Positions 7,401 through 54,600 of a stretch of 64,000 nucleotides of DNA are shown one piece after another. The notes under the pieces were generated by a model, which saw only the letters and a program-made list of their open reading frames with translations, made no database searches and was not told where the DNA came from. The number at the start of each line of letters is the position of its first letter. Positions within the stretch are counted from its first letter, which is position 1. This DNA is from Allomyces arbusculus (taxonomy: Eukaryota; Blastocladiomycota; Blastocladiomycetes; Blastocladiales; Blastocladiaceae): assembly GCA_027604705.1 (NCBI GenBank), contig JADHYV010000019.1:147637-211636 (forward strand). The letters are read 5' to 3'. Made by a program: the position numbers and the translations under genes.

Positions 7401-8756
7401 GTGCCGAAACGAAGCGGGTGCCGCTGGGAACACGAGCGCCGGTGCAAGTCGTGCGAGACCGTCCCGCATGTCAGTGAGCATGGGAAAAGCGCCCGGCGTC
7501 GCCACGATGGCAAGGTCCGGCAACTGGACTGCGACTCGGTGCAGTCCGTTGCAAATCAGCGCGTCCCGCGCAAACATGCCGTCGGCTCCGGGGAACACGA
7601 GGCTTTGCTTCATCGCAAATACCCAGTGCCACGCCACGAGCTGTAGGCACTCTTCGACGCGGTCGCGCCACATGAGCGCAGCACTGGTCGGATCGAGAAC
7701 AGCACCGGCCCAGAGCTGCACGGCCAATTTCGACGTCGTGTTGGCAAGAATGCGATCAGCGAGTCGCACGCGGACGGTGTCAGGAAGTGCCGGGACCGGT
7801 GTGCGGAGAGCAACAATTTGGAGCCACTCGTCGACGCGTGCAATTTGATAGGCCCTGGTCTCGTTGGCGGAGCGAACGCGAGCAGCAAAAGTGAGTGGAG
7901 GCTCGCAATCAAGTTGGAGATTAAGCCGATGGACGCGCTTGGTAATGCCGGGGTTGTTGGCCCATTGGATGCGCAGATAACCAGCAGGTTCGACGTCCAT
8001 GACAATGCAGGGTACTTGGTCCCGCGTCCAGTTGGGGCACTCGGCTGTGTGGTAAACCGATGTGCCACGGAGCGCAGGTCCGCGACCAGCACGAGCGTCG
8101 GCGACAACTTGCTGCAACTCCACCGACTCCCATGTCGCCGGATCATCGAAAAACACAAACGGGATTGACGCGTCAGGTGTCCACGCCGCCGTCAAATCCG
8201 GATCGAGGGTACCAACTTGGCCGAGCGTCCATGGAGCCGCGTCAGGATCGAGTAGAGGCGGAGGCGTTGGCGGTGGTCGCAAACCGGCATCGTGAAGGCT
8301 GCACGACGCCACCTCTGCTGCACCATCGCCGACATGGACCACCACATCGCACGCCTCGTCGAGCCAGGCGGGGCGAGCGTCGGGAATGAAAGTTGATGAT
8401 GCAAGCCGACGCACAGATCGAACAGATCCTGCGCCAGATCCCGCGGTACTTGGCCGGGTTCGCACGGCGGAAGAGACTGGCGCGCTCCGAGGCCGTTCTT
8501 TCCTGGCATCAATTCTTGCAATTCGCGAACTGGCCGCAGCGCTTGGACTCACGGGCGGAGGGGTGGCGGGCGCTTTGGTGCTGGGAGCCCTCAACGAGGC
8601 ACTCCTCGGCTTGGACGGGGCGCTAGTTGGTCTAGTGCTCGTAGCTCGGGACGATTTGGTGATTGCGGAAGGCTCTGTGGGCGGTGATCGAGGAACGGCG
8701 ACGGCCGCACTCGATGGACGGGTTCGTCGGGTCGCTGGTGGAGTTGCAGCCATCAT
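4497..8756 (-). CDS. Dynein heavy-chain tail-like protein lacking the AAA+ motor
   Basis: A single open frame of about 1419 residues from the ATG at 8756 (a second ATG follows at once); the frame extends a few codons upstream without an ATG. It resembles the N-terminal tail of axonemal dynein heavy chains of the DNAH1 type. Residues about 1-130 are basic, Ser/Thr/Ala/Pro-rich low complexity. A segment near residue 290 (LQLDCEPPLTFAARVRSA) matches the DNAH1 pattern before the long helical tail. Near residue 1160, PHLQMKHWFQITKRTG is the hallmark start of the dynein linker (normally RxRHWxxI). The linker then stops: about 200 residues of unrelated, partly Ala/Pro/Thr-rich sequence lead to the stop. 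No P-loop, AAA module, stalk or microtubule-binding domain follows, and the DNA beyond 4497 has no open minus-strand continuation. It could be a degraded gene, but a 4.2-kb intact frame argues for selection. Family call moderate; absence of the motor is direct. Confidence 0.6.
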   Translation of the reverse strand: MMAATPPATRRTRPSSAAVAVPRSPPTEPSAITKSSRATSTRPTSAPSKPRSASLRAPSTKAPATPPPVSPSAAASSRIARIDARKERPRSAPVSSAVRTRPSTAGSGAGSVRSVRRLASSTFIPDARPAWLDEACDVVVHVGDGAAEVASCSLHDAGLRPPPTPPPLLDPDAAPWTLGQVGTLDPDLTAAWTPDASIPFVFFDDPATWESVELQQVVADARAGRGPALRGTSVYHTAECPNWTRDQVPCIVMDVEPAGYLRIQWANNPGITKRVHRLNLQLDCEPPLTFAARVRSANETRAYQIARVDEWLQIVALRTPVPALPDTVRVRLADRILANTTSKLAVQLWAGAVLDPTSAALMWRDRVEECLQLVAWHWVFAMKQSLVFPGADGMFARDALICNGLHRVAVQLPDLAIVATPGAFPMLTDMRDGLARLAPALVFPAAPASFRHIYEQIFALAAWVDHEVRTVWRPAQLVTLTNTPYVTLTHQRLVRVADLIVSQVLTDLEEAYLHGLVQCLSPGDQVDGGILDAVQCRLLRSPILQVDLVVADHHDAVLLDPPFEDALDMVSDLVYAFRSLMTALPTLNHAVGSTPSLPPTYQFDDNTCVKGVSNRLDRAIRHSYQFIGAHLDQTLTPCLWLLDLPTDPTPNPDLDVTIFRANVAQFNTLLTKLATSAAQLAAFDPTLHTRLIHAVTGPTLRALRQGARRWRRALHESMRAMGMDLVHHVLATAQAMTETLRPCKVWRDLKAVWTGVNARLERMHEEGAALAVWWDVATAHCVSLDPDRSSGFDDEDEAEDDAGSAALCLPSSTLETANADKYWAARAVPRRMAATVAVTMDLMRAARAADIKRMTVLRDHVSNGLRAAARELATVRGQAASSWPAPPAPVSTVPGRRRESRAVSLDGTSLDHLASEAGDMPTIRPLADASTVATNAAAMARRVARIRDRLARVRSVLDDLQTLEHGAMLGEEEADPASTLAEDPDPARADNLVRAHARIAVKVQRTAAAWTLVAGIWTQLATWRGEKLARIARDTVRPTIDRWRRDVAGMVEEHREAMATDETDPPDRFLDGYRGRLLDVVTGALDESVTAPPVRPGEIEPVWTENDAASVIQRVAAAVLRDVDALAALWPVVYALCSPHLQMKHWFQITKRTGISAHDLELLTLDQVLALQLDLIRDVLPDMIGLGSSWYHSATAAAKPAAVTADAAANDGVGLSGSLVTCAFQANSLLLEGPTPPGPPLWTPESTTAQQKVATAPKSGVTAPAPSSSAVAASGKRALTIPYARIRGVLPRPPHVPRYLAREAEWTAYDVPDAAPWTQTLAGTLDDAAAPLLPAIACGPHVVRRGTWHTKVGNVAYFLSCLVDETAGETGLEVQLMQEGAIGVLVEYDPDTVPFVMVVVTAPRGTAFVSCLGPVLRWS

Positions 8757-9265
8757 TTTCGTTGCGGTTGTTGTCCTCGGGAACAGTTGCAGCAAGTTCG
8801 GGCAAGCAGACAGGAGAACGTGGTCGGTGCAGTGGCTAGCAGTCGGCTGCTGCCGGACTCAGCACAGTAACGTCGCAAGCCTACCAAAATGGGAGAGACC
8901 AACGCGGTCATGTGGACCGCGATCAAGAGCTCGCTGCTTTTCTGCCATCGCTTTCAATCCGCGCTGTCTGTCGGGCCAGTCGAGGGCCAACATGACAGCC
9001 TCTCTCAACCAATCGCACGCGACCGCAATTTATCAGCCAATATGAGGCCAAGTGCCGTGCCAGCCGCTGCACTTCGGTGAGTGAAGGAGCCAACCGCTTC
9101 ACTTGAAAACCAACCATTGCCCAGCCCACGAGTCTTCTTCTCGCTTCCCTACCATCGCTACCACCGTCTACAATCTCCAAACGAAATCTCTTGGAAGACT
9201 ATCTCCACCGCTTGGACCTCGGGCCCGCATCCTCTCTAGCCATCTTCACGGCCTCGTTATTCACG
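8757..9265. promoter_or_regulatory. Divergent intergenic region between dynein-tail and membrane-protein genes
   Basis: About 500 bases separate two genes transcribed outward, so it must carry both promoters. I see no TATA box or repeated element that I would name. An alternative upstream start for the plus gene (ATG 9191) lies inside it. Confidence 0.35.
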
Positions 9266-23838: not shown

Positions 23839-24114
23839 TGCGGGTGGTCGTGCGAGGTGAGACCCGAGCTGTGCGCCGGGGGAGAAAGCATCGTGGGCAG
23901 TCGGGCACATTGACACACGGGTGTGTGTGCGGGTAGGGGGGTGACCGTGTTCGCTTGTGTTCCATTGTTGGCGATGCAATGTGGACTTGGCTCATGCAAC
24001 CTAACCTGCCCAAGTTGCGATGCTGTCAAAGTTCCGTCGCATTCTGTCGCTCTAAGTCTCGTCCATCCAGAGATCAAAATATGCAACAACGCATGCATCA
24101 AACCCGCCGCGACC

Positions 24115-27100
24115 ATGAGCCGACCACCCGCACTTCAAGTGGAGCACACGCTTGACCTCAACCGCCTTGCCGAACACCAGCATGGCCGCCAATGGGCCTG
24201 GACGGCAATACGACACTCGCATGCCGGCTCGCTGCTCCTTCTCGCACAGTCTGGGCACCGGCTCCGCATCGCTCTTGTCCCTCAGCAACAGCAACAACAG
24301 CAGCAACATCGCTGTCGTGCCATCCAGCTGTTTGGACCGAACGTGCCGCTTCCCAGCGACTTAACCAGCCCTGATGCGCAGGTCACGTCGCTGATCGCTC
24401 AAGACGATCCGGGCCGAATGGTCCTGTCGGGCGACCGCAACGGACGCGTTGTCGAACATGTCCTTTCGTTTGACCATTCATCGACGGGCGCGGTAACGCC
24501 GTCGGTCACACCAGTCGGGCTCGTGGCGCGGTTCCCCGGTCCCTGCACCCACCTCGCTCTTGGCCCAAGCCGGTTCGCGGCGTGCGTCGGTGCCGTCGTG
24601 TACGTCATGGTCGCGCCAGCTCCGACTACGACATGGCTCAAGCAGTCGTCGGCGTCAGTGGCGCATCGACCCGTGTCAAAATCGACCAGCGCCCGTACTC
24701 CCTCTGCTGCAGCTGCACAATCGATCTGGGCCACGGCGAGTCGTATTTGTTTGGAAGGCCACCACGCGGCTGCCATTTGCTCGCAGTTTGGCCGGTCGGG
24801 CGAATGGCTTGTCACCCTCGCCGAGGACAAGACGTTCAAGGTCTGGGATCTCGTTCAAGCGCGGTGCTGCTACCAGAGCGAAATTCTGTGCCCGCTCGCT
24901 CAATTGACGCACCTGGCCATTGATCCGGTCGCACATCACCTCTACGTCGGGTCCGACGACGGCATTCTGCGCGTCTATGCGTACAGGGCCGTGCGCGGAA
25001 GCGGGACTTCGGGCTTCAAACCTGGCCCGAGTGGTACTCGCACGACCGCGGTGCGCACCTCGAGCAAAGAATCTCGCGCGATACGGTTCGAGCCGCGGCT
25101 GCACGCCCTCATCAATCTGGCCCAACCTACAACGGGACCCGATGAATATGGGGCATCGAAACCCGCTGATATTGTCATTTCTGCGCGTGGGTCGGCGATT
25201 CCGCCTGGCGATCTCGGATTGGGAGTCAAGTCGGATAGCGCGACCAGTCTCACGGACCCAGTCGTGGACCCGATCATTGCGGCGGCTCGAGTGGACCATT
25301 TGCTCTACATTGTCACGGCGACACGTCTGGTCGTGGTCGACAGCAACACGCTCAGCCGCGTTGCCCACATCGATTTGGTACAAGCTGATTCCGACGACCA
25401 ATCTGACGCTGTGCATGCGCCTGCTGTTGGTCGAGTCGACCGAGTGTCATTACTTCACCCCAACGACGACAGTGACCATCCGCAATTCACCGCCGTCGTC
25501 TCGTGCCCATTTGACGGATCGCTCAAAATCCTCTCGCTGGACCCACAACACACCTCGGGCTCCAACAACGACAACGACGCCAACCCGCGCATTCAACTCG
25601 CGATTGACCGTATTGGCGCCTCCAAACTCCATCCGGGCCTGCTCGTTTCGACCATTCTCCCTGCCATCTTGCAGGCGCTTCGCGGCGGCCATCAGCCGGT
25701 CGACTCGATGTGGTCCAAGCACGCGCTCGCTACCGTTTCCGCATCGCTCGTTGCCGCAGGCGTCGCAACGCTCGCGGATGTGGCCCGAATCAGCAAGGAT
25801 GCATGGGCGCGCATGGCACTACCACTCGGTTTACCCGCCATCATCGCCGGGGTCGCTTCACGAGCGACCACGCCGCTGGAAGCGCGGAACCCGGTCGAAC
25901 AGTTTAACTGGTCGGCGGTCCCCGTTGCACACTTGCCCGCAGGCTCGCCGATGCGCAAATTTCTGTGGTCGACCAAGACCCCGGCCAAGGACCCGCGCGA
26001 CAAACCCGTCACGTTCCGTAAGACGGTCACGTCGTCGGGGTACACGAGCGCACCGTTTGTGCCCAAGCACTTGGCCAAGAAACCGGCCGCGGCGGCGAGT
26101 ACGCGGCCCAAGTCGGCAATGACGCGGTCCACGTCGGCCACGAGCGTGCGGTCGATGAGCAGTGCCGGCGGTGAGATGCCGAATGAGTGGATGGACGAGT
26201 GGCTTGGTGGCTCGGACGACGGGGACAGCGACACAAGCACGGTCGTGGTCCCACGCGCCACGCCACGGATTGCAAACGAAACCTACGTGCACCCGTCGGC
26301 GGTCACGGCCGTTGCTGTTTCGACACGCGGGCTCAAGACGGCAGTGGGCACGAGCGACAGGGCGATTTGTCTCGTGTCAACGCGGACCATGGCGCCCACC
26401 GCGGTCAGTTTCCGGATGCCGCAGCCGGTGCAGACTGTCGAGTGGAACCACGACGAGTCGCTTGTGGTTGCCAGCACGCGACAGGCCGTGGCCGTGTGGG
26501 ACGCACGCCCGAGTACCGAAAAGAGCGCGTTGGTCGTGATGATCGAGGAACCCTACGCACCCGATTCGGTCGTTGGCGCGCAGTTTTTCTACCAATCGCG
26601 GTTCCTGGTCGTCGGTCACGGGAACACCGTCGAGCTGGTCAAGTTCCGGCCCGGGTCCACGGACGGTGGGAGTGGCAGTGATGTGGGGCGCAAGTCGATT
26701 CGGTCATCCAACTCGTCACTGAACAAGGGCACGACCACGGGCGTCCAGCCCCGGCGGCACGCGGGCGAGTCCAAGGTCGTGGCCACGGTCCCGGTCGAGG
26801 GCGCGCAGTACCTGACATGCCTCGCTGCCGATAATCTCGCGGCCAACCCGTGGATTCTCGTCGGTGCCTCGGACAAGTCGGTCGCGTTGCTCGACATGGC
26901 CACCAGCCGCGTCGCAGCGCGCGTGAACCCGTCGGCCGAGACCGGCGAGCTCCCGCCGGTCGCGAGTGCTACGGCAGGTGGGCCGCGCGCGCCGTACGCC
27001 CTGCGCGTATCTGTGGGTGCGACGACTCCGTTATTTGTGACGACGGCAGTCAACGATCTGGCCAAGGTATGGGACGCGCGAACGATGCGCGTCGTGCACC

Positions 27101-27483
27101 GACTCGGCCCACAGATCAGTGCGCCCCGTTCGCGTGCAGCGGGGACCGGCGCGTGCCTGTCGCCGTGCGGCACGCTTGTGGCCGTTCCGACTGACGAGGC
27201 CAGCCGACCCGTGGCGCTGTTTGATTTGCGGCGGTCGGGCAGGGGTGCCAGTTTGCCCGTGGCTGTGCCAATGGTGACGCGGTCTGCGGCAAGCGCTCCA
27301 ACAGCATCACAGTCGTCACTGCTGCAAGGTACCAAATCGGAATTGGTGGCGCCGATTGGGCGTGGGGGACTTGGTGGTGGTGGAGGGCGCGAAATGTGGA
27401 CAGCGGTCGACTTTCATCCACGAGCACGGTGGCTCGTAGCCGGATCTAGTCGCGGATACTGCGCACTCTACGGAGGAATCTAA
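24115..27483 (+). CDS. WDR27: WD40-repeat protein WDR27
   Basis: A single-exon frame of 1122 residues from the ATG at 24115 (GACCATGA context). Upstream in-frame codons are open but poorly protein-like. It matches WDR27, an animal-type double WD40 protein of poorly known role. The N-terminal propeller includes TLAEDKTFKVWDL and HHLYVGSDDGILRVYAY. The centre carries the family-specific linker KTVTSSGYTSAPFVPKHL, the counterpart of the human "SKVRSSGYASAPHV" stretch. The second propeller has VVGAQFFYQSRFLVVGHG and TTAVNDLAKVWDARTMR. A polyglutamine tract (8 residues, encoded near 24285-24307) interrupts blade 1, and Ser/Thr-rich insertions make it longer than human WDR27 (about 830). Its gene starts 276 bases from the divergent zinc-finger gene, so the two share a promoter region. 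Confidence 0.85.
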   Translation: MSRPPALQVEHTLDLNRLAEHQHGRQWAWTAIRHSHAGSLLLLAQSGHRLRIALVPQQQQQQQQHRCRAIQLFGPNVPLPSDLTSPDAQVTSLIAQDDPGRMVLSGDRNGRVVEHVLSFDHSSTGAVTPSVTPVGLVARFPGPCTHLALGPSRFAACVGAVVYVMVAPAPTTTWLKQSSASVAHRPVSKSTSARTPSAAAAQSIWATASRICLEGHHAAAICSQFGRSGEWLVTLAEDKTFKVWDLVQARCCYQSEILCPLAQLTHLAIDPVAHHLYVGSDDGILRVYAYRAVRGSGTSGFKPGPSGTRTTAVRTSSKESRAIRFEPRLHALINLAQPTTGPDEYGASKPADIVISARGSAIPPGDLGLGVKSDSATSLTDPVVDPIIAAARVDHLLYIVTATRLVVVDSNTLSRVAHIDLVQADSDDQSDAVHAPAVGRVDRVSLLHPNDDSDHPQFTAVVSCPFDGSLKILSLDPQHTSGSNNDNDANPRIQLAIDRIGASKLHPGLLVSTILPAILQALRGGHQPVDSMWSKHALATVSASLVAAGVATLADVARISKDAWARMALPLGLPAIIAGVASRATTPLEARNPVEQFNWSAVPVAHLPAGSPMRKFLWSTKTPAKDPRDKPVTFRKTVTSSGYTSAPFVPKHLAKKPAAAASTRPKSAMTRSTSATSVRSMSSAGGEMPNEWMDEWLGGSDDGDSDTSTVVVPRATPRIANETYVHPSAVTAVAVSTRGLKTAVGTSDRAICLVSTRTMAPTAVSFRMPQPVQTVEWNHDESLVVASTRQAVAVWDARPSTEKSALVVMIEEPYAPDSVVGAQFFYQSRFLVVGHGNTVELVKFRPGSTDGGSGSDVGRKSIRSSNSSLNKGTTTGVQPRRHAGESKVVATVPVEGAQYLTCLAADNLAANPWILVGASDKSVALLDMATSRVAARVNPSAETGELPPVASATAGGPRAPYALRVSVGATTPLFVTTAVNDLAKVWDARTMRVVHRLGPQISAPRSRAAGTGACLSPCGTLVAVPTDEASRPVALFDLRRSGRGASLPVAVPMVTRSAASAPTASQSSLLQGTKSELVAPIGRGGLGGGGGREMWTAVDFHPRARWLVAGSSRGYCALYGGI

Positions 27484-27971
27484 GTCAATTGTCAACCCGC
27501 AAGGATATGTGCAACTGTGCCAGCGCGCGATGGCAAACCGCAAGCGAAAGGGATGCAAGGCTCCGAGAGAGACGTCTGGTCGCGATCACGTGTGCATGAT
27601 ATTGCCTGCTTGAACAACAAGCGTTGATCGTCCCCGCGAAGCCCATTCGGATGTACATGCCAACAACCCGTTGAACAACGCGCACACCCTGCACCAGATC
27701 TGCATTTTTGTCTTTGTTCAGCTGTCGAGCTGATCCGATTGGTGAGCGGCGGGACCCTCCACCAACGCACAAGCCAGTACCCGCATCGACGAGCCCATCG
27801 CAGCAACGGCCTACCGTTCGGCGATCAAGAACAAGGAGACGACGCGCAGGATTATTCGCTGGATCTCGTCCACCCGCTCGTGGCCCTCTAACGACTTGGC
27901 CCGGATCAGCGCCGTCATTCTTTTGCCGAGCAGGACGCTTGATCGATCGTATTCGCCACATGGTCTGTAAA
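27484..27971. other. Intergenic with a possible small minus-strand gene
   Basis: Between WDR27 and the repeat-protein gene. The minus strand holds a protein-like stretch around 27830-27950 (GKRMTALIRAKSLEGHER then VDEIQRIILRVVSLFLIAE) that meets a GTAGGC donor. A join to GTGTGCGCGTTG near 27680 would give a short hydrophobic C-terminus. I could not close a full gene or recognise a family. It may be a small real protein. Confidence 0.3.
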
Positions 27972-30900
27972 ATGACTTCGCGACACGGCGATCCCGTCGA
28001 TTCCCTTCTTTGTTCGACCGTTTGCGTCGCTCACGAATCCGGCCGCACAACTTTCGCCAATCCAGGGGTGCGGAGCATCCAAGCAGCTCGCGACGCAGTC
28101 GACGGCGCAGCCCACGGCCAATTCGGCGTCGTCGTCGCCGGCCAAGGGCAAGGGCAAGATCAAGTGTAAGTGCAAAGGCAAGTGCAAGTGCAAGGACGGC
28201 AAGGAGGAGCCCGCCACGAACGCAAATGCCGGCGCAGGCCACAAGACGGCAAGTACGCCGACGAGTCCTGTCAAGGCCACGCCGAAGCCGACACCCGTGC
28301 CCGAGCCGGATCTCTGCCCGACGGCCGCCGGGTATGCCGAAGCTGACGCAAAGAGAGCAGCTGCGCCTTCACCAAGTCATGCCCGAGTACGTTATTGCTC
28401 GGTACTCCTTTCCTTTCGCGCGACACCAATTTCCACACAGAATCTGACTCGTTACTCGCAACAGGGCCCCAATATAAATGATTCCACCGGCCACGTGGGC
28501 GCGGCATCGTCGTCCGCGCACGACGGCACCGGGTCCAGGCTGCATCTCGCAGCCGACACGTCTGACCACGCGCTGCGCGCCAACAGCTCGACCGTCGCGA
28601 TCCAGCCCGGGAGCACGCTGCACATGGCCATGTCGGCGTCGTCGACGGCGGGAATGCGCCCGCCAACGGCCGCCGCGTCCGTCTCTCTGTCGTCGAGCGC
28701 CGTCGGCGCCCTCGCCGCATCCGTCGCACCGGGCGTGTCGGATTCGTGCGATGTGGTGGAGACGGAAGTCGGGCCGTTCAAGGTGCCCAAGACGACGACT
28801 TCTGGCACGGCGGCTCCTGCGGTCGGGATGCCGGCGGGCGCACGCCCCGATGCGCTCACGCGCAGCCAGTACCTGGCGTTTTCGACGAGAATGATCGAGG
28901 AGACGGGTTCGTGGCGTCCAGCGGCAATGCTCGGGAGGGATGATGACATAGAACTGACGGTGGGTTCCCTTGACGTGCGCTTATCCAGCTGTCGCGCCAG
29001 TTGCCAAGCCCTCGCCTGCGCCGGTCGCGAGGAGCAACAAGGATCTGCACGACAAGACCGCGGCCACTGGCACTGGCAAGGACATCCGTATGATCACTAC
29101 ACCTGGGTGCGACCTCACTACCGTCAACGACTCAGCCACCAACTCGCACCGTACCCCCGATCCTATCGCGGAAAGCACCAAGAGTCTTGCTGAACAGCCA
29201 CGCGTGACGGCTGAGCACGAGGCCTACACGAAGACCGCCTCGGGCCGCAACTTGGCCGACGTCTACACGGCTCACAAGGAAGAGGACGACGACCGCAGCG
29301 AGCACCCGCGCGACGGGTCGCAAACACAGCTGTTTTCTGCCGCGTCCGACGCGCCAGCAGGGCGGGCGAGCCGGCACAGCATGCACGAGCACGCGGCCAT
29401 TTCGACCGCTCTGCCCGAATCTGTTTACGAGCTGCACACGGGTACCGATGACAAGACGGCCAGTCACACGAGTCTCGACGCGGCCGTGGCAGCTCCACTG
29501 CCGGCATCGACGCACGACTTGGCCGCGCGCGACCGCGGCAAAACGGCGAGCCGGATGAGTCTGCAAATGGCCGCAATGGCCGCGACACTGCCGACATCGG
29601 TCATGGAACTCGACGAGGCAAGGTCCGCGGAGACCCGCGACACGGCGTTGCCGCCGCGCGAGCAGGAGCAAGGGTCGGCCGACGACACCCGCGAGTATTT
29701 GCCGCTCAAGGGTCTTTCAGACGAGAACGTGGCGCAAACCGCCCTCAATGCGCCATTACCGGCGTCGATCATGGACTTGACTGCATCCGACCGTGCCGCG
29801 AGCCACGCGAGCTTGGCACACGCCAAGGGGGTCCCGCTCCCCGCATCAACCATGGACCTCGCCGCGCCCGAGTCGCCCAGCGAGTCGACCGGATCGGACC
29901 ACTCGCTCTCGGCCGCCCTCGCCACAAACCTGCCCGCGTCAACCAACAACCTCGCTGAGAGCCCGCACGCATCGCACGTGCAGCTCACCGCCGCCATGAC
30001 GCGCGCGCCGCTTCCCGCGTCCATGCACAATCTGGCGACGGCGAGCCGCGCATCCAGCCGCACGAGCGTGCGCGACGTGCGGTCGACGTCGCGGCCCGTC
30101 TCGGCCGGCAAGCCCATCACATCCAACCGAGCGACCAGCCGCTCGAGCACGCACATGGCGGGCATCCCCCTACCTGCATCGACCAATGACTTGCGCACGG
30201 CGAGCCGCACGAGCGTGCACGCGCGCAACGCGCCGCTTCCAGGATCGACTAACGACTTGGCCACTGGTTCGCGTGCGTCGAGCCGCGCGAGCGTGCATGT
30301 GGACCGCGCAATTCGAGCGCCGTTGCCCGGGTCGACTTACGAGTTAGCGGCGGCTGATGCGGGGGCGCCCCACGCGCCGAGTCGTTCGAGCCTGCGTGAG
30401 GGTGACGATGAGAGTCGTGCGGTTCATGCGGCGCTCCCGGCGTCCACAAATATGCTGGCTGAAGACGACGAGCCGCGTGGGTCGGCTGAGGCTTTACGGG
30501 CCACGTCTGAAGATACGCTCACGTCGCCATCGGGGAGCCGGCACAGTTTGCATGTGGCCAAGGCGGTGCAGGCGCCGTTGCCGGCATCGACGTGGGAGTT
30601 GGGTGTCGCCGGGGAGCCCGCGGCACGGTTGAGCCGCAATCAGCTGCACCAAGCAACGGCAGCACCGCTGCCTGCATCGACCATGGACTTGGCCGCGTCC
30701 GACGAGCCGTTGGCGAGCAGCGAGTCGGTGCAGCGGTCCTTGGAGCTCGGCGATGCCGCGCGTGCCGCGCCGCTGCCAGCATCCACGTACGATCTGAACG
30801 TGTCGAACGCTTCGCGCACGGCGAGCCGCGCAAGTCTGCATCTCGACAAGGCGACCAAGGTCCCGCTGCCTGGGTCGACGTACGACATAGCAGCCCTCGG

Positions 30901-31786
30901 CGAGGAGACGCGTGCGGCCAGTTGCACGAGCGTGCACCTCGACCACGCGGCCCGTGCGCCGCTGCCCGCGTCCACGTACGACCTCGCGCCCGAGTTGCCG
31001 TCAGGTAATGGGAGTCACGCGAGCGTGCATCTCGACACGGCCGCGCGCGCGCCGCTGCCGGCGTCGACCTACGATCTGGCCGACTCGTCGCCGCGGTCAG
31101 CGAGCCGCACGAGCGTGCACATGAACGACGCGGTCCGTGCACCCCTGCCCGCATCGACCTACGATCTCGCGCCGCTCACCAAGTCCGGGTCGCCGTCACG
31201 CACGGCGAGTCACACGAGTGTTCACCACGCGGCACGCGCACCGCTTCCGGCATCAACCTACGACCTCGCACCGGTCGAAGCGACGAGAACGTCTGAAGGC
31301 AGCACGGCGCATTTCGAGACGGCGGCGCTCGAATCCCCACTCTCGCCATCAGCGCAAGATCTCGCGCGGCCCACGAGCGCCGATACGGCCGCACGCGCAC
31401 CGCTCCCCGCATCCACGAACGACCTCGCGGACCGGTCCGCGACCAAAGTGCCGCTCCCGGCATCCACCATGGACCTCGCTTCTTCCTCTCGTCCAAGCCG
31501 TCCGGGATCGGCGAGCGGCACGCGCACGTCGCGCCCCGCATCGGGCAGTGCGCCGTCGCGTCCAAGCGGTGGGTCCGCGTCGTCGACACGGCGCGCAAGT
31601 GTGGGTGGACTGGTGCGGGAGGGGAGTCGCCGCGCGTCGGCAGCGGCGGTCGGGATCGGGTCGCCGTTGCGGCCGGCGTCGTCGGAGAGCCGCAAGGGGG
31701 TCGTGCAGGCGGTCGCGGTCGTGGGAAGAGGGTCAGTGCGGCCTGCGTCGGGTAAGGGGTCGAGTCGGCCGGGGTCTGGCGCGTGA
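27972..31786 (+). CDS. Novel repeat protein with about 22 copies of an APLPASTxDLA motif
   Basis: Proposed exons 27972-28019, 28066-28386, 28465-28906 and 28989-31786, about 1202 residues. The last three exons are well supported; the first is tentative. No family is recognised. Near the N-terminus lies a Lys/Cys stretch, KGKIKCKCKGKCKCKDGK, which looks able to bind metal. Residues about 150-320 are Ser/Ala-rich. From about residue 410 to 1120 a unit of 20-35 residues repeats about 22 times. Its core is RAPLPASTYDLA, and the linker usually contains SRTSVH or SRASLH before the next RAPLPAST. Variants include APLPGSTYELA, VPLPASTMDLA and TNLPASTNNLA. The tail is Ser/Arg/Gly-rich and basic. No membrane segment, signal peptide or enzyme motif is seen. 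It may act as a multivalent scaffold; Arg-x-Ser spacing suggests phosphorylation (inference). Confidence 0.7.
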
Positions 31787-32044: not shown

Positions 32045-33164
32045 ATGAAGATACCGCTCTTCACGTCCAAATCGCGGCAGCTGACGTTTGCCGCGACCGT
32101 CACGATCCACTCGCTCGACCAAGTGCCGATGCTTTCGGGCACTTTCTACGCCAAACTCAAGCTCTCGCGCACCAACACATCCTGGCCCGCAGCCAATGCC
32201 GCTAATGCCAGCGTGTCAAGCACGACAGTCGACAGCCTCGCACCTGTGCCCTTGGGCCCGACACCACCCCATTCGGGCGGCCACGGCGGTTTCCACTACG
32301 CTGGGCAATCCAGTACGAGCACGACGCCCACAACCTCTTCGCCGCGCACGCAGCTACGCGACCATTCCGTGCGGTGGGACTGGACGTGCGCGTTTGACGT
32401 GCACATGGTCAAGGACGACGATGGTATGCTGGAGCCGATGCCCATGACCGTGGTCGTCAAACAGGTGCGGCTTGCAGACGATTCTGAGAAATCGCGGCGG
32501 TGGAGACTGACGCAGTGGGCAAAGACAGTAGTTCAAGGCTGAAGAAAATGTGACGGAGCGCGTCGGGGTCGTCAAGCTCGACTTGGCGCCGTTTGCGGGG
32601 GCGCGGTCAACGACCCGCCGGTTCTTGCTTCAAGAGTCGAAAATCAACTCGACGGTCAAGGTGCGTGAGCGTCCTTTGTGATGCGAATCGAGTGCCGGGC
32701 TGCTTGAATTGACGCTGTTCCGGCGGAGTTTAGGTCACGATTGCCATGAATCTGATCAAGGGCGACCCCATGTTCAAAGTGTACGCATTCCGGTGTCGAT
32801 TTCGTTTCGCACGACGAGTTGGAATCTGACGCGCTGGCACGCTCCCTTTATCAGCCCGGACCTCTCACCGGACCTGCAAATCGACCTGTCGCGGATCGCC
32901 AAGGGGATGATGACGAGCACGTCGGGCGTGCAAAACGCGGCCGCCAACATCACCGACGCCTACTCGATGCGCGAAAATGGTATGCCAGACTCCATCGCAG
33001 CTTGTTGAACGAACCAACTCATCTTGCCTTGCACGAACTCCAGACGCGACCAGCGTGTATCGGCTGCGAGCCACGTCCATGTCCGAAGCCGTCGTCGCCG
33101 GCGTCAGCAACCCTAAATCGACCGCACGATCCATCATGACGCTGGTACGTGCCCCTCCCGTCAC

Positions 33165-33195
<31 letters not shown>

Positions 33196-33551
33196 AGCCT
33201 CCAATCGATCGGCTGACGGCGCCCACGCAGGACCAATTTGACGACCCGGCCACTGGCTCGTCCTCCGCCACGACCCCCCTCAACGCCGCCCCCCTCCCCG
33301 CATCCGGCACGCTCGACCGTCCCGTGCCCGTACCCGTCGTGGTCCCACTCGTCCCCAACGCGGACCCGCGGTCACCGGCCGACGTCGTCGCCGCGCTCTT
33401 TGCACAAGTCGTCCTCGCTCAAAAACAGCAGGCGCCGTTCCATGCCAAGGCGCACAGCGACGATACGGCCAGTGGACGTTCGCGCGGACTGAGTCGTTTG
33501 GCGCTCGCAGGGGTGGGCGCACGAAGTGAAGAGTTGTTGGTGGGGCCTTGA
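32045..33551 (+). CDS. NT-C2 domain protein (EEIG1/EHBP1-like)
   Basis: Six exons: 32045-32464, 32538-32660, 32734-32780, 32855-32979, 33044-33144 and 33231-33551, giving 378 residues with all phases closing. The N-terminal about 200 residues form an NT-type C2 domain: a start MKIPLFTSKSRQLTF, then VPMLSGTFYAKLKL, a variable loop of about 60 residues, VRWDWTCAFDVHM, RVGVVKLDLAPFAG and LLQESKINSTVKVTIAMNL ending in IKGDPMF. This order matches EEIG1/EHBP1 NT-C2 domains, which bind membranes or small GTPases; fungi have similar proteins tied to vesicle traffic. The C-terminal 170 residues are less ordered, with a helix and a Pro/Val-rich stretch. Intron 5 contains a polyC/CA microsatellite. The stop is 17 bases from the stop of the convergent POLD2 gene. 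Confidence 0.75.
33164..33196. repeat. PolyC tract followed by (CA)8 microsatellite
   Basis: Seventeen C residues, then eight CA units, inside the last intron of the NT-C2 gene and just upstream of its acceptor. The tract extends the acceptor's pyrimidine stretch; length changes could affect splicing. Confidence 0.9.
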
Positions 33552-33568
33552 ATGAGAGATGTATTTTT

Positions 33569-35358
33569 TCATCCGAATTGGACGGTGCGAATGGCGAGCG
33601 TGGCGAGGTTGACGAGAACGAGTAGTTTGGCGCGCGTGAATTCGGGCAGGAGAAGGACGCGCACGGAGGATGGGGAGGGTGGGGCGTCGTCGGTGTCCAT
33701 GGCGTCCGGGTCGGTGTTCTCGGCGTCGGTGGGGTCTATGCGCAGAAGAGGATGTCAGGAGGAGTTCCAGCGTCGGCGGAGGTGCAAAGTCGCGTATACC
33801 TTCGTAAATGCACGTCGCGAACTCGGGCTGGTTGCCGACGACGAGCAGGCGTGACCGTTCGGGCAGGACAAATGGGTCGTCGTCGACGTATGGGTAGCAC
33901 CCTGGATTGAGCAAAAGAGTCAGGATCATCGCTGCGAGGTGCACGACCAAGAGCAATGGGAGTAGCGTACACAGCGTATCTGGCGCGGTCGGCGCAATGT
34001 GCCGCCAATCGAGCATTCGTCGGGCCAGCGCAAGTCGGTCGTCGCCGGGCACGTACTTGAACAGGTCGTCGAGCGGTTGGCCGCTCGTCACGGCAAGACT
34101 ACAGTTCAGAATCACGACCGAAAGTCAACCACCGCGACCACTCGTCCACGAGCCAATCGCAATGACTAAAGAACGGACGGGAAGCCAGCACACTGCACAA
34201 ACAAGGGATTCGGTACACTCAAGAATTCCGAGTGTTTACTTGCTTGTGCAAAGAGCGACGGGTGCATGGGCTGTTGCGGCAAGACGTGCGTCGCTGGGTC
34301 GACGGGGCCGGGCAAGACCGTTACGGGTACTGTCGCGGCCATTTGTGCTAGGTAGGCGTCGGCCTCAGGCAAGCCCTTCTCGACATGCTCGGCCTCGATG
34401 ACATTGCCCACGACAAAGATGCGGCCGACACGGTGGAGAAGGTCGAGGTCCTACAGAGCATCACAAGTCAACAACAACATCCATTGATTCGTACGCGGAA
34501 GATGAGTTTGTGGACGCACCTCGTCACAACCCAACTCGCCCGCAACATAATCCGACAACATTTGCGCGGCGAGCAAGTCCGCATCGGCCGCCCCAAACCG
34601 GAACCCCGAGACAAATCCGACCCACGGGCCATCGTTGCCCTCCGGAACTGGCGACGTGAGTGATGGGAGGCCGGCATAGCACAAGTCGAGCACGTCAAAA
34701 CCACCCTGCGCGTTTTCTGACCCAAGCACGGCCGCGACAGTTCCCGTCACGACCGAGTAGTTGGCCAAGAGCGGTCCCTCGAGCCGCACGCGCCCATACT
34801 CGTCCTCGAGCATGACGACGTCCTTTTCCGAGTAGATTTTCTCGCGGTGCGGCGGCGGGAGCGCGGATCCGTACTGGTCGAGGCGGTTTTGAGCGGTCAG
34901 ACCAAGGAAATGAGAGGATCAATGAATGGGGCTCGCGTACTTCGCTGGCGATATCATCGAGAATATTGGGCTTGAGTGGCATTTCACAGAAGAGCGTGCC
35001 GACGATCCAAACCGTCGACTTTGGGCGAATGTCGACGACGCGCTCAACGTGCCGCACTGTGCCGCGTTCTGGTCCATGAGACGAGGCGATGAGAGGCAAA
35101 CGAATTTGGGCCTTGAGAAAGGCAATCCATGGCCAAATTACCCATGACCGAGCCCCATTTGCGATTCGCGGCCGCGACAACATGCGGACGCAGTTTTTGC
35201 AGGCGCGAAAAGTAGAGGTTGGCGTATTGCTGCGTGTAGGTGCGGTCCTTGAGCAAGAACGGTGCCGAGGCCGTCAAGTCGAGATTGGCAATGGTGCGCG
35301 TCTGAGGTTGGCTTGCAGCATCGGCGCCGTGATGCAGCTGGGTCGACGGTGCGGTCAT
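33569..35358 (-). CDS. POLD2: DNA polymerase delta small (B) subunit
   Basis: POLD2 (Pol31/Cdc1) is the structural B subunit of DNA polymerase delta, linking the catalytic subunit to POLD3, in the nucleus. Seven exons: 35149-35358, 34941-35111, 34520-34873, 34203-34450, 33971-34098, 33800-33901 and 33569-33735, 459 residues (human 469), all phases closing. Hallmarks in order: the OB-fold start APFLLKDRTYTQQYANLYF; VVMLEDEYGRVRLEG; GPWVGFVSGFRFGAADADLL; a calcineurin-like phosphoesterase fold with LPGPVDPATHVLPQQPMHP; TSGQPLDDLFKY; RRMLDWRHIAPTAPDTLWCYP, with the Trp codon rebuilt across an intron; and VVGNQPEFAT. The phosphoesterase site is inactive in this family. The stretch between VPNP and TSGQ is shorter than in animals. 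It is divergent from RIP1, with about 370 bases between start codons. Confidence 0.92.
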
Positions 35359-35730
35359 GGTTCCGGTTAATGCTCTTGCGGGGCTGCACCAGGACGTGCT
35401 CTGAAGCTCTGGTGGTACACTGTCAAACGGCAGTGGAGAGGAGGACGTCGTCGTTGAGGACGACCAGAGAACTTGAGTGACACGACGAATAGAATGCAAG
35501 CGTCTGGGTCTTTGATCCCAAGCTCGACACAAGTGGCACCTCGAGCAGGTGATTGTGCAGAGAAAAGGCAGGGCTTCTCATCTCGATCGCTTGTTGATTT
35601 GCGCGTGACCTGGCGTGAAAGCACTTTGCCTTCGTTCATCGTGCTGCCCGCGAGCCCCTGCCCGCCGCCGCCTTCGACGACGACGACCGCCCCAGCACCT
35701 TCGTCCACGACGTTGCCTGTTGCCGCAATC
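35359..35730. promoter_or_regulatory. Divergent promoter region POLD2 / RIP1
   Basis: The 372 bases between the two start codons must contain both promoters. I see no TATA box. A pyrimidine-rich stretch precedes the RIP1 ATG. Confidence 0.4.
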
Positions 35731-36844
35731 ATGTCCAGCAGCCTCGCCCTTGCCGCGCGCTCCGCCGCCCGCGCCGCCGTCGTACGTGTCCGGCTACGAC
35801 GGCTGCCACGGCTCAATCAAACGCCCAAGCACCCGGCGCCAATCGACCGTGCCCGAAGCTGCCCGGCCTGCAACGGCGCCTGAAGCGCTTCCAATGCCGG
35901 CATCTACGTCCAACCTGACCCGGGGAACCTGGTCATGGTCGACGTTGCCTTGCGGGGACCCCGGCCGCGATTGGTGTCGGCATCAAGGCGCTTGGAAGGG
36001 CCACATTGGTATAATGGAGCACCGAATACTGACGCTGGCTCTCGCGTCCTCATGTATCAATTCCACTCGCCGCCCATACGATCCAAACCGCTCGTTCCGG
36101 TGCATCATTGCCTGTTCCGTTCATCAGCGCACGACGGGTACGCTCGCCCCCCTCCATGTCGATGACGATGACGGCCCATCTGCATCGCAATCCGCGCAAG
36201 ACACCGGCCATGGGCATCAACCAACCTCCTTGCAACCCCTGCGTGTAGCCCGCGCCTCGTTTCACACTTCGGTCGCCGCCAAGACCGAGACGACGCAGAT
36301 TCCCGACTTTGGCGCCTACAAGAAGACGTCGTCGGCCGCCAACGATCGCGCCTTCACCTACTTCATGGTCGGGTCGACGGGTTTCCTGACGGCTGTTGCC
36401 GCCAAGAACACGGTGCACGACTTCCTTTCGAACTTGTCGGCCTCGGCCGATGTCCTGGCCCTGGCCAAGGTCGAGGTCGACCTGACAGCGATCCCGGAGG
36501 GCAAGAACGTGGTGCTCAAGTGGCGCGGCAAGCCCATCTTTGTGCGCCATCGCACGCAGGCCGAGATCGACGAGGCCAACTCGGTCGACATTGCCTCGCT
36601 GCGCCACCAGGAGACCGACGCGGAGCGCGCCAAGAAGCCCGAGTTCCTCGTCATGCTCGGCGTCTGCACGCATCTCGGCTGTGTCCCCGTTGGCGAGTCG
36701 GGCGATTTCGGTGGCTGGTACTGCCCGTGCCACGGGTCGCACTACGATATTTCGGGCCGCATTCGCAAGGGCCCGGCCCCGCTCAACATGGAGATCCCGG
36801 AGTACCAGTTCATTGAGGGCGACACCAAGATCGTCATTGGTTAA
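35731..36844 (+). CDS. RIP1: Rieske iron-sulfur subunit of the cytochrome bc1 complex
   Basis: The Rieske protein passes electrons from ubiquinol to cytochrome c1 in complex III of the mitochondrial inner membrane. The main exon, 36249-36844, is certain. It gives the matrix segment, one membrane helix (FTYFMVGSTGFLTAVAAKN), the hinge SASADVLALAKVE and the [2Fe-2S] domain with CTHLGCVP and CPCHGSHYD, which supply the two Cys and two His ligands. The presequence probably starts at the ATG at 35731 (SSSLALAARSAARAAV), ending at a GTACGT donor after 35781. The reading phases do not match directly. A 10-nt microexon at 36128-36137, flanked by CAG and GTACGC, would restore the frame and give 218 residues (family 210-235). 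That microexon is inference. Confidence 0.93.
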
Positions 36845-50000: not shown

Positions 50001-51610
50001 CATTGCTGAGCCTCCGATGTGTGGCGGCCCGATGAGGAAATGGATCATGGGGACAGCGGCGTGCGTTGGCCGAGGCGTTGCCAGCGTCCCTCATGGGTCG
50101 GTCGCATGGGCAGTTGGTGGCACAGGCAGGTCATGGTGAGGCAGGCAATGGAGCACGCGCAAGGGTGTGGGGTGCAATGGGATGGGCCCCTCGTTTGTTT
50201 TCGCTGTAGTCGGCATGCGCAAGACACTGGAAACGCTCTGGAAAACACAAAAGCTCTTGTGCAGTGCGCCACAAGGGCGTGCTGCGGTACGAAAGGGACC
50301 CTGCGAGCGCCCCCTTCCAAAATTCCAATCTTCAACCGTCGTCGACGGCAAATCCCAGCTGTGACGAGATTTACGGTTCGCAAACAGAGTTTTGGCAGTC
50401 TGTTTTTGATAATGTATTCGTATCGTGGTCGTGGCGTGCGGTCCTGCCCTCACGAGGTCATCCAGCGCAAGCAAGATTTACGTGGCTGGAGTTGGCTCTT
50501 CTCGTTACGAAAGTCGGCCTGGCGTTCTCGTTTTGTCTCGTTTTTCTTGCTGATTTTTTCTTCGCTTGCGCGCTCCTTGGTCTCGGGCGACGACGTCGAC
50601 GCCTTGAGCATCGCTGCCATTGGGGCGCCGACGCAGTGGCATCGCGCGAACCCCTGGCGCGCATCGAGGCGCCTGTGGCTCGGCTGACAAGGCAGTCCGT
50701 GCGCGCCATGCAGCAACCCATGCGCAACAGAGTCCCGCCCAACGACCCAGCATCGGTCGTGCGCCGGGCCAACACGCCCCGAGAATCCATGCGGCCTGCA
50801 CAGGCTTGAAGACCCGCCCGGCCGGTCGGCTCGCAGTTGGCGTGCGCCGTCAACGACGGTCGGCCGCTCGCTCGCTGTCGGACACTGGCGGCGTTCTCTC
50901 GGTGTTCTATTTCGGCGTGGACCTCGCCCGACCTTGCCCGACCCCTACATAACTCGGGCCCTCCCCCTGCCCAGCCCGACTCGGCCTGCTCCTCCCCTCC
51001 TGCCTCTCGCCCCACACGCTCGGCCCCCACCCTGCGTGCGACACTCGAGACCAGCGGACGGACCAGCACAGTCTCCGACGCCAGCGCCAAGGATTACGAC
51101 CTGTGCGCTGCCCGCCGCCGCACTGCTGCCCCTCTCCTCGCTTGCCAAAGCAGAGTGCTGCCCACCAGCCTCTAGCTCGCGTGCTCGACCAGGTCTTGCG
51201 CGCCGGCGTCCCTGATTCGACGGGATCTGTCTCGCGTTGCGGCCGATCTCCTCTTCATCTCGCTGACCCGGTCGAGTCGATTGTGAGCAACTTTGGTGCG
51301 TGCGTCCTCGCGTCGTCCTCTCTTTTTGCGCTGTCGCGCACGGTGCCGAAGTGCCGCGGTGCCGGTGATGCGCCCGCTGTGGTGTGCATGCTGGCCGAGC
51401 CGTGTTCGGCGTGGTTGAAGTCGAGCCGACGATTCGATTGTGGTTCGAGAATCGCGCCCGTGACCGCGCAACGCCGCCAAATCCGGCTGGCATCGCCGAT
51501 TTACACCGCAGACTAACCTGTTCGCTTGCGTATGTTCTGTTCGCGTTCGCTCTTCGTCTCTCTCTCTTCGTAGCCGGACCACTACCACCACCGTCGTCGC
51601 TGCCATCACC
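47098..51610. other. 4.5-kb gene-poor region with no gene I can support
   Basis: High-GC DNA with many overlapping short frames and no recognisable domain. A plus-strand frame at 48076-48290 has a hydrophobic stretch (ISCFWAGALLLCAASLYLFV) but no partner exon. A TATA-like box at 48317 precedes a 114-codon frame at 48441-48785 that I cannot identify. Around 49475-49700 the plus strand reads LVIMVAVVADFPTVARVFGA, also unassigned. The last kilobase before the ABC transporter ATG is probably its promoter and leader. Some of this may be a decayed insertion. Confidence 0.35.
48317..48324 (+). promoter_or_regulatory. TATA-like box (TATATAAA)
   Basis: An AT-only octamer in otherwise very GC-rich DNA, about 120 bases upstream of an unidentified 114-codon plus-strand frame (48441-48785). 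It fits a TATA box by sequence. Whether a gene is driven from it is unknown. Confidence 0.3.
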
Positions 51611-54600
51611 ATGACCGCCGAGGACAAGAAGCAGCTTGTCGAGGGCGGCCCGCGTGCCCCAGGCACGTCGTCGCGGCGTCTGCGCCGTGCCGTCAACCTC
51701 GGCTCGAGCTTTTTCCTCAACAACTGGTGGTACCTGTGGGTCTTCACGCTCATTCACCAAGTGCGCTCGACGGCGACGCGCGGTGCCATTAACCTGCGCA
51801 AGCTGCGGTTCCGCTTGCCCGAGAACCTGTCGGCGCGCACGAACGGCCGTGCGATCGACGATGCCTGGAAGGAGGAGTGCAAGTCGGGCAACCCGACGGT
51901 GCTCGGCGCGCTGCGTCGCGTCTACCAGTCGCACTACATTTTGATCGGCATGTGGAAGCTTGTCTGGGGTATTTTCACTTGGGCCGGTACGTTTTTGCCT
52001 TTTCCTGCGTGTAGTTCGCGTTTGCGCGGTCGCTCGCGGCCCCCATGTTTCCCCCTGAATTCGCTCATGCTCACCATCACCGACTCGGGTCATTTTTCTC
52101 GTTGCCTAGGTGCCTACTACTTCCTCAAGGTCTTTGTGCTGTTCCTGCAGAACGACGAGGAGGAGTTCAAGGGTCACATGTGGGCGCTCGCGCTTGGTCT
52201 CTCGTCGCTTTTCTCGTCGATCGCGATTCACCAGCTCTACGGCGAGTGTGCGCGCGAAGGTGTGCGCGTCAAGTCGGCGCTGACGGTGCTCGTCTACCGC
52301 AAGGCCCTGGTTCTCGCGCGCGTGCGCGGCGGTGCTGGTGAAGTGATCAACATTGTCTCGACCGATGTGGCCCGTGTGCAAGACGCGGTGCTCAACGTGC
52401 ATTTCCTGTGGACCTCGGCGATCGAGACGACGGCGATTTTGATTATCGCGTTTGTCGAGATTGGCTACTCGGCCTTCACGTCGCTCGCCATCATTTTCGC
52501 GCTCATGCCCGTGCAGGCCTACCTCGGCAAGATCACGGCCACGATGCAGCGCGAGAACACGGAGATTACGACGCAGCGCGTGCACATCATGTCGGAGGTG
52601 CTGACGGCCATCAAGCTGATCAAGTTCTACGCGTGGGAGGCGCCCTTTTCGTCCAAGATCAACGAGATTCGTGCGCGCGAAATGGCGCTTATCTACAAGT
52701 CGTTCCAGATCAAGGCCATCAACTTTGCCGTTGTCTTTGCCGCGCCTGTCGTCGTCGCCATTGTTGCGCTCGCCACCTACCGGTACACGGGCCACACGCT
52801 CACGTCGTCGATCTCGTTCACTGTGCTCTCGGTCTTCAACACGCTGCGTTACCCGTTGCTCATGCTGCCGCAGGCTGTCAAGTCCTTCTCGGGCGCCAAC
52901 GTCTCGCTCGACCGTCTGACCGCATACATGACGCAGACTGAGGTCGAGGAGTTCAAGGCGCTGCCGCAGCGCAAGGACGACCCGACCGCCATCGAAATGG
53001 TCAACGCCTCGTTTACGTGGGAGGGTGAGCCGAAGCCGGCGCTCGAGGACATTTCGATCAAGGTGAACCGCGGCGAGATTCTGGCCGTTATTGGTGATGT
53101 CGGTTCCGGCAAGTCGTCGCTCGTGGCCGCGCTGCTCGGCCAGATGCGCCAGACGGGCGGCGAGAAGTTCAAGGTCTACGGTTCGACGTCGTACGTGCCG
53201 CAGGAGGCCTGGCTCATCAACATCACGCTCAAGGACAACATCACGTTTGGTCTGCCCTACGAGCCCCGCAAGTTTGACGAGGTCATTCGCGTGTGCGCGC
53301 TGCAGCGCGACTTGACGCTTCTTGCGGCCGCCGAACAGACGGAAATTGCCGAGCGCGGTGCCAACTTGTCGGGTGGGCAGCGCCAGCGCACGTCGCTCGC
53401 TCGCGCCGTCTACGCCAACGCTGACATTATTTTGCTTGATGACCCCCTCTCGGCTGTCGACCAGGCGGTCGGTCGCCACATCTTCACCGAGTGCATCAAG
53501 GGCCACTTGAAGGGCCGCACGGTCGTCATGGTCACGCACCAGCTGCAGTACCTGCACGAGGTCGACAAGGTGTTGCACTTGAAGGACGGCAAAATTGCGC
53601 GCTACGGCACGTTCACCGAGCTCATGGAGGAGGAGGAGTTTGCCGAGCTGATCAACAACCACGTCGCGGCCGGCGAGGAGGGCGACGACGACGTCGAGGC
53701 CATGCCGCTCGAGCCAATTTCGAACAACAAGGTGACCGTGGCCGGCCCGTCGGGTGAGGTCGAGCTCAACCAGCTGACGGTCAAGTCGATGAAGAACCTG
53801 CAGCTCTCGGAGCGCGACCTGGCGTCGATGGCCGAGCGCAACCAGTTGTCGGTGATCAAGGGTGGTGCTGGCGCGTCGCACGATGTCGCCGCTGCGATTC
53901 AGCGCAACGAGCTCACGATTCACTCGATTCGCGACCTGGCGCCGGGCATTGGCGACTACGTGCTCGACACGGACGACGAGTACGACTCCGACGAGGACCG
54001 CGACGAACGCAAGGCCGGCCAGCTCGTGACCGAGGACAAGTCGACCGAGTCGCTCGGCTGGGCCGACTACATTGCCTACGCGCGCTCGGGCAACGGCACG
54101 CCGCTGACCGTCTTCACCATGATTTTCTTCTTTGTCGTGCACGGCGTGCGTATCGGCTCGGATTACTGGCTGAAGTGCTGGATCCCGAACACGCTCAAGC
54201 TCGGCGACAATGCCGACGCCATCTACGTCGGCACCTACGCCGGTTTCATTGCTCTGTTCGTCATTGGTGTCTTGTCGCGTGGTCTGCTGTTCGCGTACGA
54301 GGCTGCTGCCAAGGCACGCGCTCTCCACGACAACATCTTCAACCGCCTCATGCGCGCGCCCATGGCCTTCTACGTACGTTTTCCCTCGATCTCGGGTTCT
54401 CCTTGTCGTTGACAACGCGCACAGAAAGCTGACGGAGGTCCTGCTTGCTTTGACCCAAAATAGGACATGACGCCGCTCGGCCGTATCCTGTCGGCGTTTG
54501 CCAAGCACCAGTTCCACGTCGACGAGACGATGCCCGACTCGGCCATGCAGGGTCTGCAGTACGTGCCGCTCACGCTCGGCGCCTTCCTGCTCGTGGCAAT

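What the first reader, a model, noticed from the sequence alone, without database searches (positions are those of the whole stretch)
28989..31786. Undescribed protein with about 22 copies of an APLPASTxDLA repeat
Units of 20-35 residues share a near-invariant core (RAPLPASTYDLA) and a linker often containing SRTSVH. The core is far better conserved than the linkers, while DNA codons differ between copies, so selection acts on the protein. I know no family with this signature. A Lys/Cys-rich cluster (KCKCKGKCKCK) lies near the N-terminus, and the repeats could be multivalent docking sites.
Basis: seen in the sequence. Interest (0 to 1): 0.85.

Follow-up and report, generated by a model that had tools for sequence, protein, structure and literature searches.

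The report
Lipid-anchored repeat scaffold of swimming fungi
A fungus related to the water-dwelling genus Allomyces carries a long, floppy protein with a predicted fatty-acid membrane anchor at its start and about 21 copies of one conserved short motif; it looks like a membrane-bound docking strip, but what docks there is not known.

Summary
The repeat is real. The frame at 28989-31786 (+) is the last of four exons of a predicted 1187-residue protein with 21 copies of A-x-x-[AV]-P-L-P-A-S-T-x-[DE]-L-A. The closest proteins are two full-length 'hypothetical proteins' of Allomyces macrogynus (81 and 79% identity over the repeat region); a distant relative is in Catenaria anguillulae, so this is a family of the phylum Blastocladiomycota. 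Core positions are conserved between species more than linkers. The Lys/Cys cluster lies in exon 2, outside the given coordinates, and Catenaria lacks it. No Pfam, NCBIfam or PDB family reaches its cut-off. Best reading: a disordered, lipid-anchored, multivalent docking scaffold on the inner face of a membrane, perhaps that of the zoospore or its flagellum. Anatomy is shown; lipidation is predicted; partner and location are inferred. New variant of a known kind; interest 0.45.

The parts
27960..27962 (+). exon 1: the start codon alone
   Evidence: splicing to exon 2 gives MGCGASKQ..., the annotated start of both A. macrogynus proteins; the annotation is theirs, no transcript was seen
28066..28386 (+). 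exon 2: acylation-type N-terminus (GCGASKQ) and Lys/Cys cluster
   Evidence: introns GT..AG at 27963-28065 and 28387-28464
28144..28194 (+). Lys/Cys cluster KGKGKIKCKCKGKCKCK (residues 28-44)
   Evidence: present in both A. macrogynus proteins, absent from Catenaria
28465..28906 (+). exon 3: low-complexity region ending in the conserved TRSQYLAFSTRMIEET motif
   Evidence: intron 28907-28988; donor chosen so that the join agrees with the A. macrogynus proteins (MVEETAVAPVAKP)
28858..28905 (+). central motif TRSQYLAFSTRMIEET (residues 240-255), SRSAYLAMQSNMVEDT in Catenaria
   Evidence: local alignment score 59 against mean 31 and maximum 50 in 500 shuffles
28989..31786 (+). exon 4: repeat array, basic Ser/Arg-rich tail, stop codon
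29405..31483 (+). array of 21 cores (starts 29405, 29492, 29582, 29750, 29831, 29924, 30005, 30164, 30230, 30317, 30428, 30572, 30662, 30767, 30860, 30956, 31049, 31139, 31238, 31397, 31448; 36 bases each)

Best explanation
The gene encodes a cytosolic-face, membrane-anchored, intrinsically disordered scaffold. Step 1 (predicted from sequence): Met1 is removed, Gly2 is N-myristoylated and Cys3 palmitoylated; in Allomyces the Lys/Cys cluster adds charge and possibly more palmitates. Step 2 (inferred): the chain stays disordered, and each of about 21 repeats shows one short linear motif, AxxAPLPASTxDLA, in which PLP breaks the chain and S-T-x-D-L-A starts a short helix with a Ser N-cap and Asp/Glu capping box. 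Step 3 (inferred): one partner domain binds the motif in a groove through Leu, Pro and the second Leu, so one scaffold gathers many copies of that partner under the membrane; Ser sites in the linkers (R-x-S type) and the core Ser (S-x-x-D/E, a CK2-type site) could switch binding. Step 4 (weakest inference): since the known hosts are zoospore-forming fungi and MGC starts take calflagin and RP2 to flagella or cilia, the zoospore plasma or flagellar membrane is the likeliest place.
For: Four-exon model collinear with two annotated A. macrogynus proteins. MGCGASKQ identical in four of four proteins, including the otherwise very divergent Catenaria relative, whose only cysteine is Cys3. The host genome has N-myristoyltransferase and an UNC119-type myristoyl-cargo chaperone (best PDB match unc-119 homolog A, E 1.1e-32). 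21 cores here and 6 in Catenaria at 8 bits or more, against a shuffle mean of 0.022; cores more conserved than linkers between species. Max 19-residue hydropathy 1.45, in an Ala/Ser-rich stretch, gives no clear transmembrane helix. AlphaFold2 mean pLDDT 32.8, fitting disorder. Dual acylation directs calflagin and RP2 to flagella or cilia (PMC6678300, section 6 read).
Against: No experiment: lipidation, partner and location are untested. AlphaFold2 had 3 sequences, so low confidence is weak proof of disorder; the three-repeat model from 15 pseudo-homologous rows stayed at pLDDT 52.1 with only short helices. Many non-ciliary proteins also start MGC (19 genome matches to ATG-GG-TG-pattern with S/T/R/W-K, against 5 for the reversed control), so the start does not prove a flagellar place. 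No RFX X-box-like site lies near the gene (3 in the window, 4.53 expected). The core is not perfectly kept: single copies read LPAPM or LPAAT in AMAG_17963 and LHASA in AMAG_01027.
Confidence: 0.55

Rival explanations
1. Submembrane skeleton: the repeats bind a filament (microtubule or other polymer) all along its length and tie it to the membrane, as SAXO/MAP6 repeats or alveolin repeats do; the motif is then a filament-binding unit, not an adaptor site.
For: Long array of regular units with a lipid anchor and, in Allomyces, an N-terminal Cys-rich cluster; basic Ser/Arg tail (16 Lys/Arg to 2 Asp/Glu in residues 1091-1187).
Against: No Pfam match to a SAXO, tubulin-binding or alveolin-type family; the array itself is slightly acidic (60 Lys/Arg, 76 Asp/Glu in residues 371-1090), which is unusual for a microtubule binder; the Cys cluster is not conserved.
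Confidence: 0.2
2. Phospho-switch platform: the core Ser (S-x-x-D/E) and linker Ser (R-x-S) are kinase sites and the protein works mainly as a multisite phosphorylation target that recruits phospho-readers such as 14-3-3 or FHA domains.
For: Core Ser in 21 of 21 copies, Asp/Glu at +3 in 18 of 21; many R-x-S and R-x-x-S sites (24 and 30, K counted with R).
Against: The other invariant residues (Leu, Pro, Leu, and Ala at -3) are not needed for a kinase site; the same Ser...Asp/Glu spacing is a helix capping box; +3 is Asn or Met in the remaining 3 copies.
Confidence: 0.15
3. Neutral, low-complexity repeat expansion in an Ala/Ser-rich GC-rich gene, with no function for the motif.
For: Ala 18%, Ser 14%; one in-register unit loss in AMAG_01027 shows that the array can change by recombination; linkers drift freely.
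Against: Synonymous sites between copies are near saturation while LPxS...L stays; core above linker between species; the same core in Catenaria with unrelated linkers.
Confidence: 0.05

Closest known systems
AMAG_17963 and AMAG_01027, hypothetical proteins, Allomyces macrogynus ATCC 38327
   Same: Same protein end to end: start, Lys/Cys cluster, central motif, repeat order, tail
   Different: Two copies there; AMAG_01027 lacks one unit, cut in register. Neither has a described function in the records seen
BCR44DRAFT_1510248, hypothetical protein, Catenaria anguillulae PL171
   Same: MGCGASKQ start, [ST]RSxYLA....MVE[ED]T motif, LPxSxx[DEN]L repeats with Ala at -3
   Different: 722 residues, 6 cores at 8 bits or more, different linkers (KKxxS types), no Lys/Cys cluster
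Dual-acylated flagellar/ciliary proteins (calflagin/FCaBP, RP2)
   Same: Gly2 and Cys3 in an MGC start (PMC6678300, passages and section 6)
   Different: Calflagin carries EF-hands (recalled) and RP2 its own folded domains (recalled); none found here
SAXO/MAP6 family (recalled)
   Same: Cys-rich N-terminus plus tandem short modules
   Different: No Pfam match; the motif is not the SAXO module as I recall it; Cys cluster not conserved

Membership tests
The Allomyces/Catenaria MGCGASKQ-LPASTxDL family | MGCGASKQ start | tested here: met
   4 of 4 proteins
The Allomyces/Catenaria MGCGASKQ-LPASTxDL family | tandem LPxSxx[DE]L cores | tested here: met
   21 in the window protein; 22, 21 and 6 hits at 8 bits or more in P0004, P0005, P0006; 0 in the neighbouring WD40 protein as control
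Dual-acylated membrane proteins | MGC start with Ser at 6 and Lys at 7 (recalled consensus) | tested here: met
   sequence only
Dual-acylated membrane proteins | myristate and palmitate present on the protein | not testable with these tools
   needs click-chemistry labelling or mass spectrometry
Flagellar membrane proteins | location in the flagellum | not testable with these tools
   no expression or imaging data found for these genes
Calflagin/FCaBP | EF-hands | tested here: not met
   no EF-hand in Pfam scans of P0001, P0002, P0004, P0005, P0006
SAXO/MAP6 | match to a SAXO/MAP6 profile | tested here: not met
   no such model among the Pfam matches
Metallothionein | conserved Cys pattern as the core of the protein | tested here: not met
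   cluster absent from Catenaria; no Pfam match

The most novel reading that the evidence does not exclude
AxxAPLPASTxDLA is an undescribed docking motif of Blastocladiomycota: a dual-acylated scaffold displays about 21 copies to concentrate one partner, still to be found, under the zoospore or flagellar membrane (for example part of the light-steering or beat-control machinery), so that the number of copies sets the density of the assembly.
Probability: 0.25. Interest if true: 0.7.

Novelty: new variant of a known kind. Interest (0 to 1): 0.45.

Why it matters
If right, it gives a phylum of flagellated fungi its own membrane scaffold with an unusually clean, countable docking motif. A single tandem peptide could be used as bait to find the partner, and zoospore-forming relatives would let one test what the copy number does. 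It would also add a lineage-specific part to fungal zoospores, whose known flagellar parts list rests on reference proteins from other organisms (PMC13358043, abstract start and passages seen).

Tried and rejected
Pfam near-misses dropped because all lie under their cut-offs: Tlde1_dom 20 of 30.1 bits in P0001, Mpp10 11.9 of 29.9 in P0005, NCBIfam conj_PilL 13.7 of 64.15 in P0001. PDB by profile: 0 matches at E up to 1.

First gene model (1206 residues) was dropped: its exon-3 donor added 19 residues not found in the A. macrogynus proteins; the model agrees with them. The choice was thus guided by those proteins and is not independent of them.

Paralogues: the repeat finds only this exon (4 matches); a strict codon pattern for PLP[AG]STx[DE]L has 14 matches in the genome, all here, with 1 for the reversed control; a looser one has 30 matches, 11 here and 19 scattered singly, against 10 in the control; the Catenaria protein finds only this exon (4 matches). 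The full-length search with P0005 failed twice, so a paralogue without repeats is not excluded.

A second gene starting MGCGASKQ was found on contig C17. By eye it looked stathmin-like; this was not borne out: Pfam gives no stathmin match, PDB none, and the genome's stathmin match is on contig C4.

C-terminal tail likeness to Catenaria is not above shuffles (73 against a mean of 56 and a maximum of 102). X-box search: nothing. Structure: both AlphaFold2 jobs low, so no fold search was made.

Limits: each protein search scored only about 8000 candidates sharing most words (7996, 7990, 7994), so relatives in other flagellated fungi may have been missed. The Catenaria hit is E 6.4e-3 by itself and rests also on the shared start, central motif and cores. 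The region-based N-terminal search did not find it.

Full report
What is there. The open frame at 28958-31786 (+) encodes the repeats. Upstream, in another frame, lie the Lys/Cys cluster and a start of the form GCGASKQ. Three GT..AG introns (27963-28065, 28387-28464, 28907-28988) join an ATG-only first exon and three coding exons into a 1187-residue protein. Both Allomyces macrogynus records, annotated by others, have the same start and run collinear to the end, which supports the model; I saw no transcript. The third donor was chosen with the help of those proteins.

The repeat. A profile finds 21 cores. Column counts over the 21: Leu at +2, Pro at +3 and Ser at +5 in 21 of 21; Leu at +9 in 20 (Ile in one); Ala at -3 in 19; Pro at +1 in 17; Thr at +6 in 17; Asp or Glu at +8 in 18; the residue at +7 is free (Tyr, Met, Asn, His, Trp). 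Codons vary, and synonymous differences are near saturation, so the copies are old and not a recent DNA expansion. The low pN/pS in the core (0.087 at L,P,S,L; 0.33 over nine columns; about 1.06 in linkers) is partly built in, since these residues defined the copies. The test free of that compares species: window against AMAG_17963, core 171 of 189 identical, linker 412 of 519; against AMAG_01027, core 173 of 187, linker 404 of 490; all three identical in 85.6% of core columns, against 75.7% on average for circular shifts, with 33 of 5000 shifts as high. So the support is real but moderate. The C-terminal tail is about as conserved as the core (85 of 98 and 88 of 98), a result that tempers the claim that the core is special.

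Relatives. Three searches of 5.8 billion proteins, each scoring about 8000 candidates, returned the two A. macrogynus proteins and, in one of the three, a 722-residue Catenaria anguillulae protein (E 6.4e-3). That protein starts MGCGASKQ, carries SRSAYLAMQSNMVEDT where the window protein has TRSQYLAFSTRMIEET (score 59, shuffle maximum 50 of 500), and has 6 cores at 8 bits or more (shuffle mean 0.022, maximum 2 in 500), each with Ala at -3. Its linkers differ and its only cysteine is Cys3. What has been kept between the two lineages is therefore the start, one central motif and the core; the Lys/Cys cluster and SRTSVH are Allomyces features.

Host. The genome has 25.9 Mb in 197 contigs. The two best proteins make it Allomyces or close kin. 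It holds N-myristoyltransferase and UNC119, the machinery for an MGxxxS protein. The motif, read as a strict codon pattern, occurs nowhere else in it (14 of 14 matches here).

How it may work. Shown: gene, repeats, conservation, relatives. Predicted: N-myristoylation at Gly2 and palmitoylation at Cys3 (consensus recalled). Inferred: disorder (AlphaFold2 mean pLDDT 32.8 from 3 sequences; 52.1 for three repeats aligned with other repeats, with short helices at model residues 12-17 and 25-28), a short N-capped helix at STxDLA, and docking of a partner. The flagellar or zoospore membrane is the weakest step: it rests on the lifestyle of these fungi (general knowledge) and on dual acylation as a route to flagella and cilia (PMC6678300, section 6), while no X-box-like element was found and MGC starts are not confined to cilia.

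What is known in print. Full-text searches of the held library for LPASTYDL (0 papers), for the three locus tags and MGCGASK (0) and for PLPAST (3 papers, none on a protein by title) found no description; subscription papers are not in that library. For the fungal flagellum atlas (PMC13358043) I saw only the listing and nine passages.

Surroundings. Upstream on the same strand is a WD40 protein (23914-27483), downstream an NT-C2 domain gene (from 32045). Neither explains the repeats.

Verdict. It is an undescribed, blastocladiomycete-level family of predicted lipid-anchored multivalent scaffolds: a new variant of a known kind.

Noticed in passing
G000 contig C17:343469 (L010 970-1915): A second gene of the same genome starts MGCGASKQ; two exons, 290 residues, Ala-rich then a coiled-coil-like end; no Pfam or PDB match. 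The same acylation start on an unrelated protein.
   Followed up: partly
27960-28065: The first coding exon is the start codon alone, followed by a 103-base intron.
   Followed up: partly
23914-27483 +: WD40-repeat protein directly upstream, two WD40 stretches; NEDD1-like by eye only.
   Followed up: no
32045-32541 +: NT-C2 domain gene directly downstream (29.1 bits, cut-off 25.2).
   Followed up: no
4497-8858 - and 795-2960 +: Dynein heavy chain N-terminal region (31.3 bits, just under the cut-off 31.9) and a HOOK protein (68.6 bits) near one end of the window.
   Followed up: no
51464-54412 + and 54464-55975 +: Two adjacent ABC transporter frames, each with membrane and ATPase regions.
   Followed up: no
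35609-36844 + and 33372-34124 -: Rieske iron-sulphur protein and DNA polymerase subunit B fragment.
   Followed up: no
P0005 near residues 1014-1016 (AMAG_01027): One repeat unit is missing, cut core to core in register, which suggests recombination between cores.
   Followed up: partly
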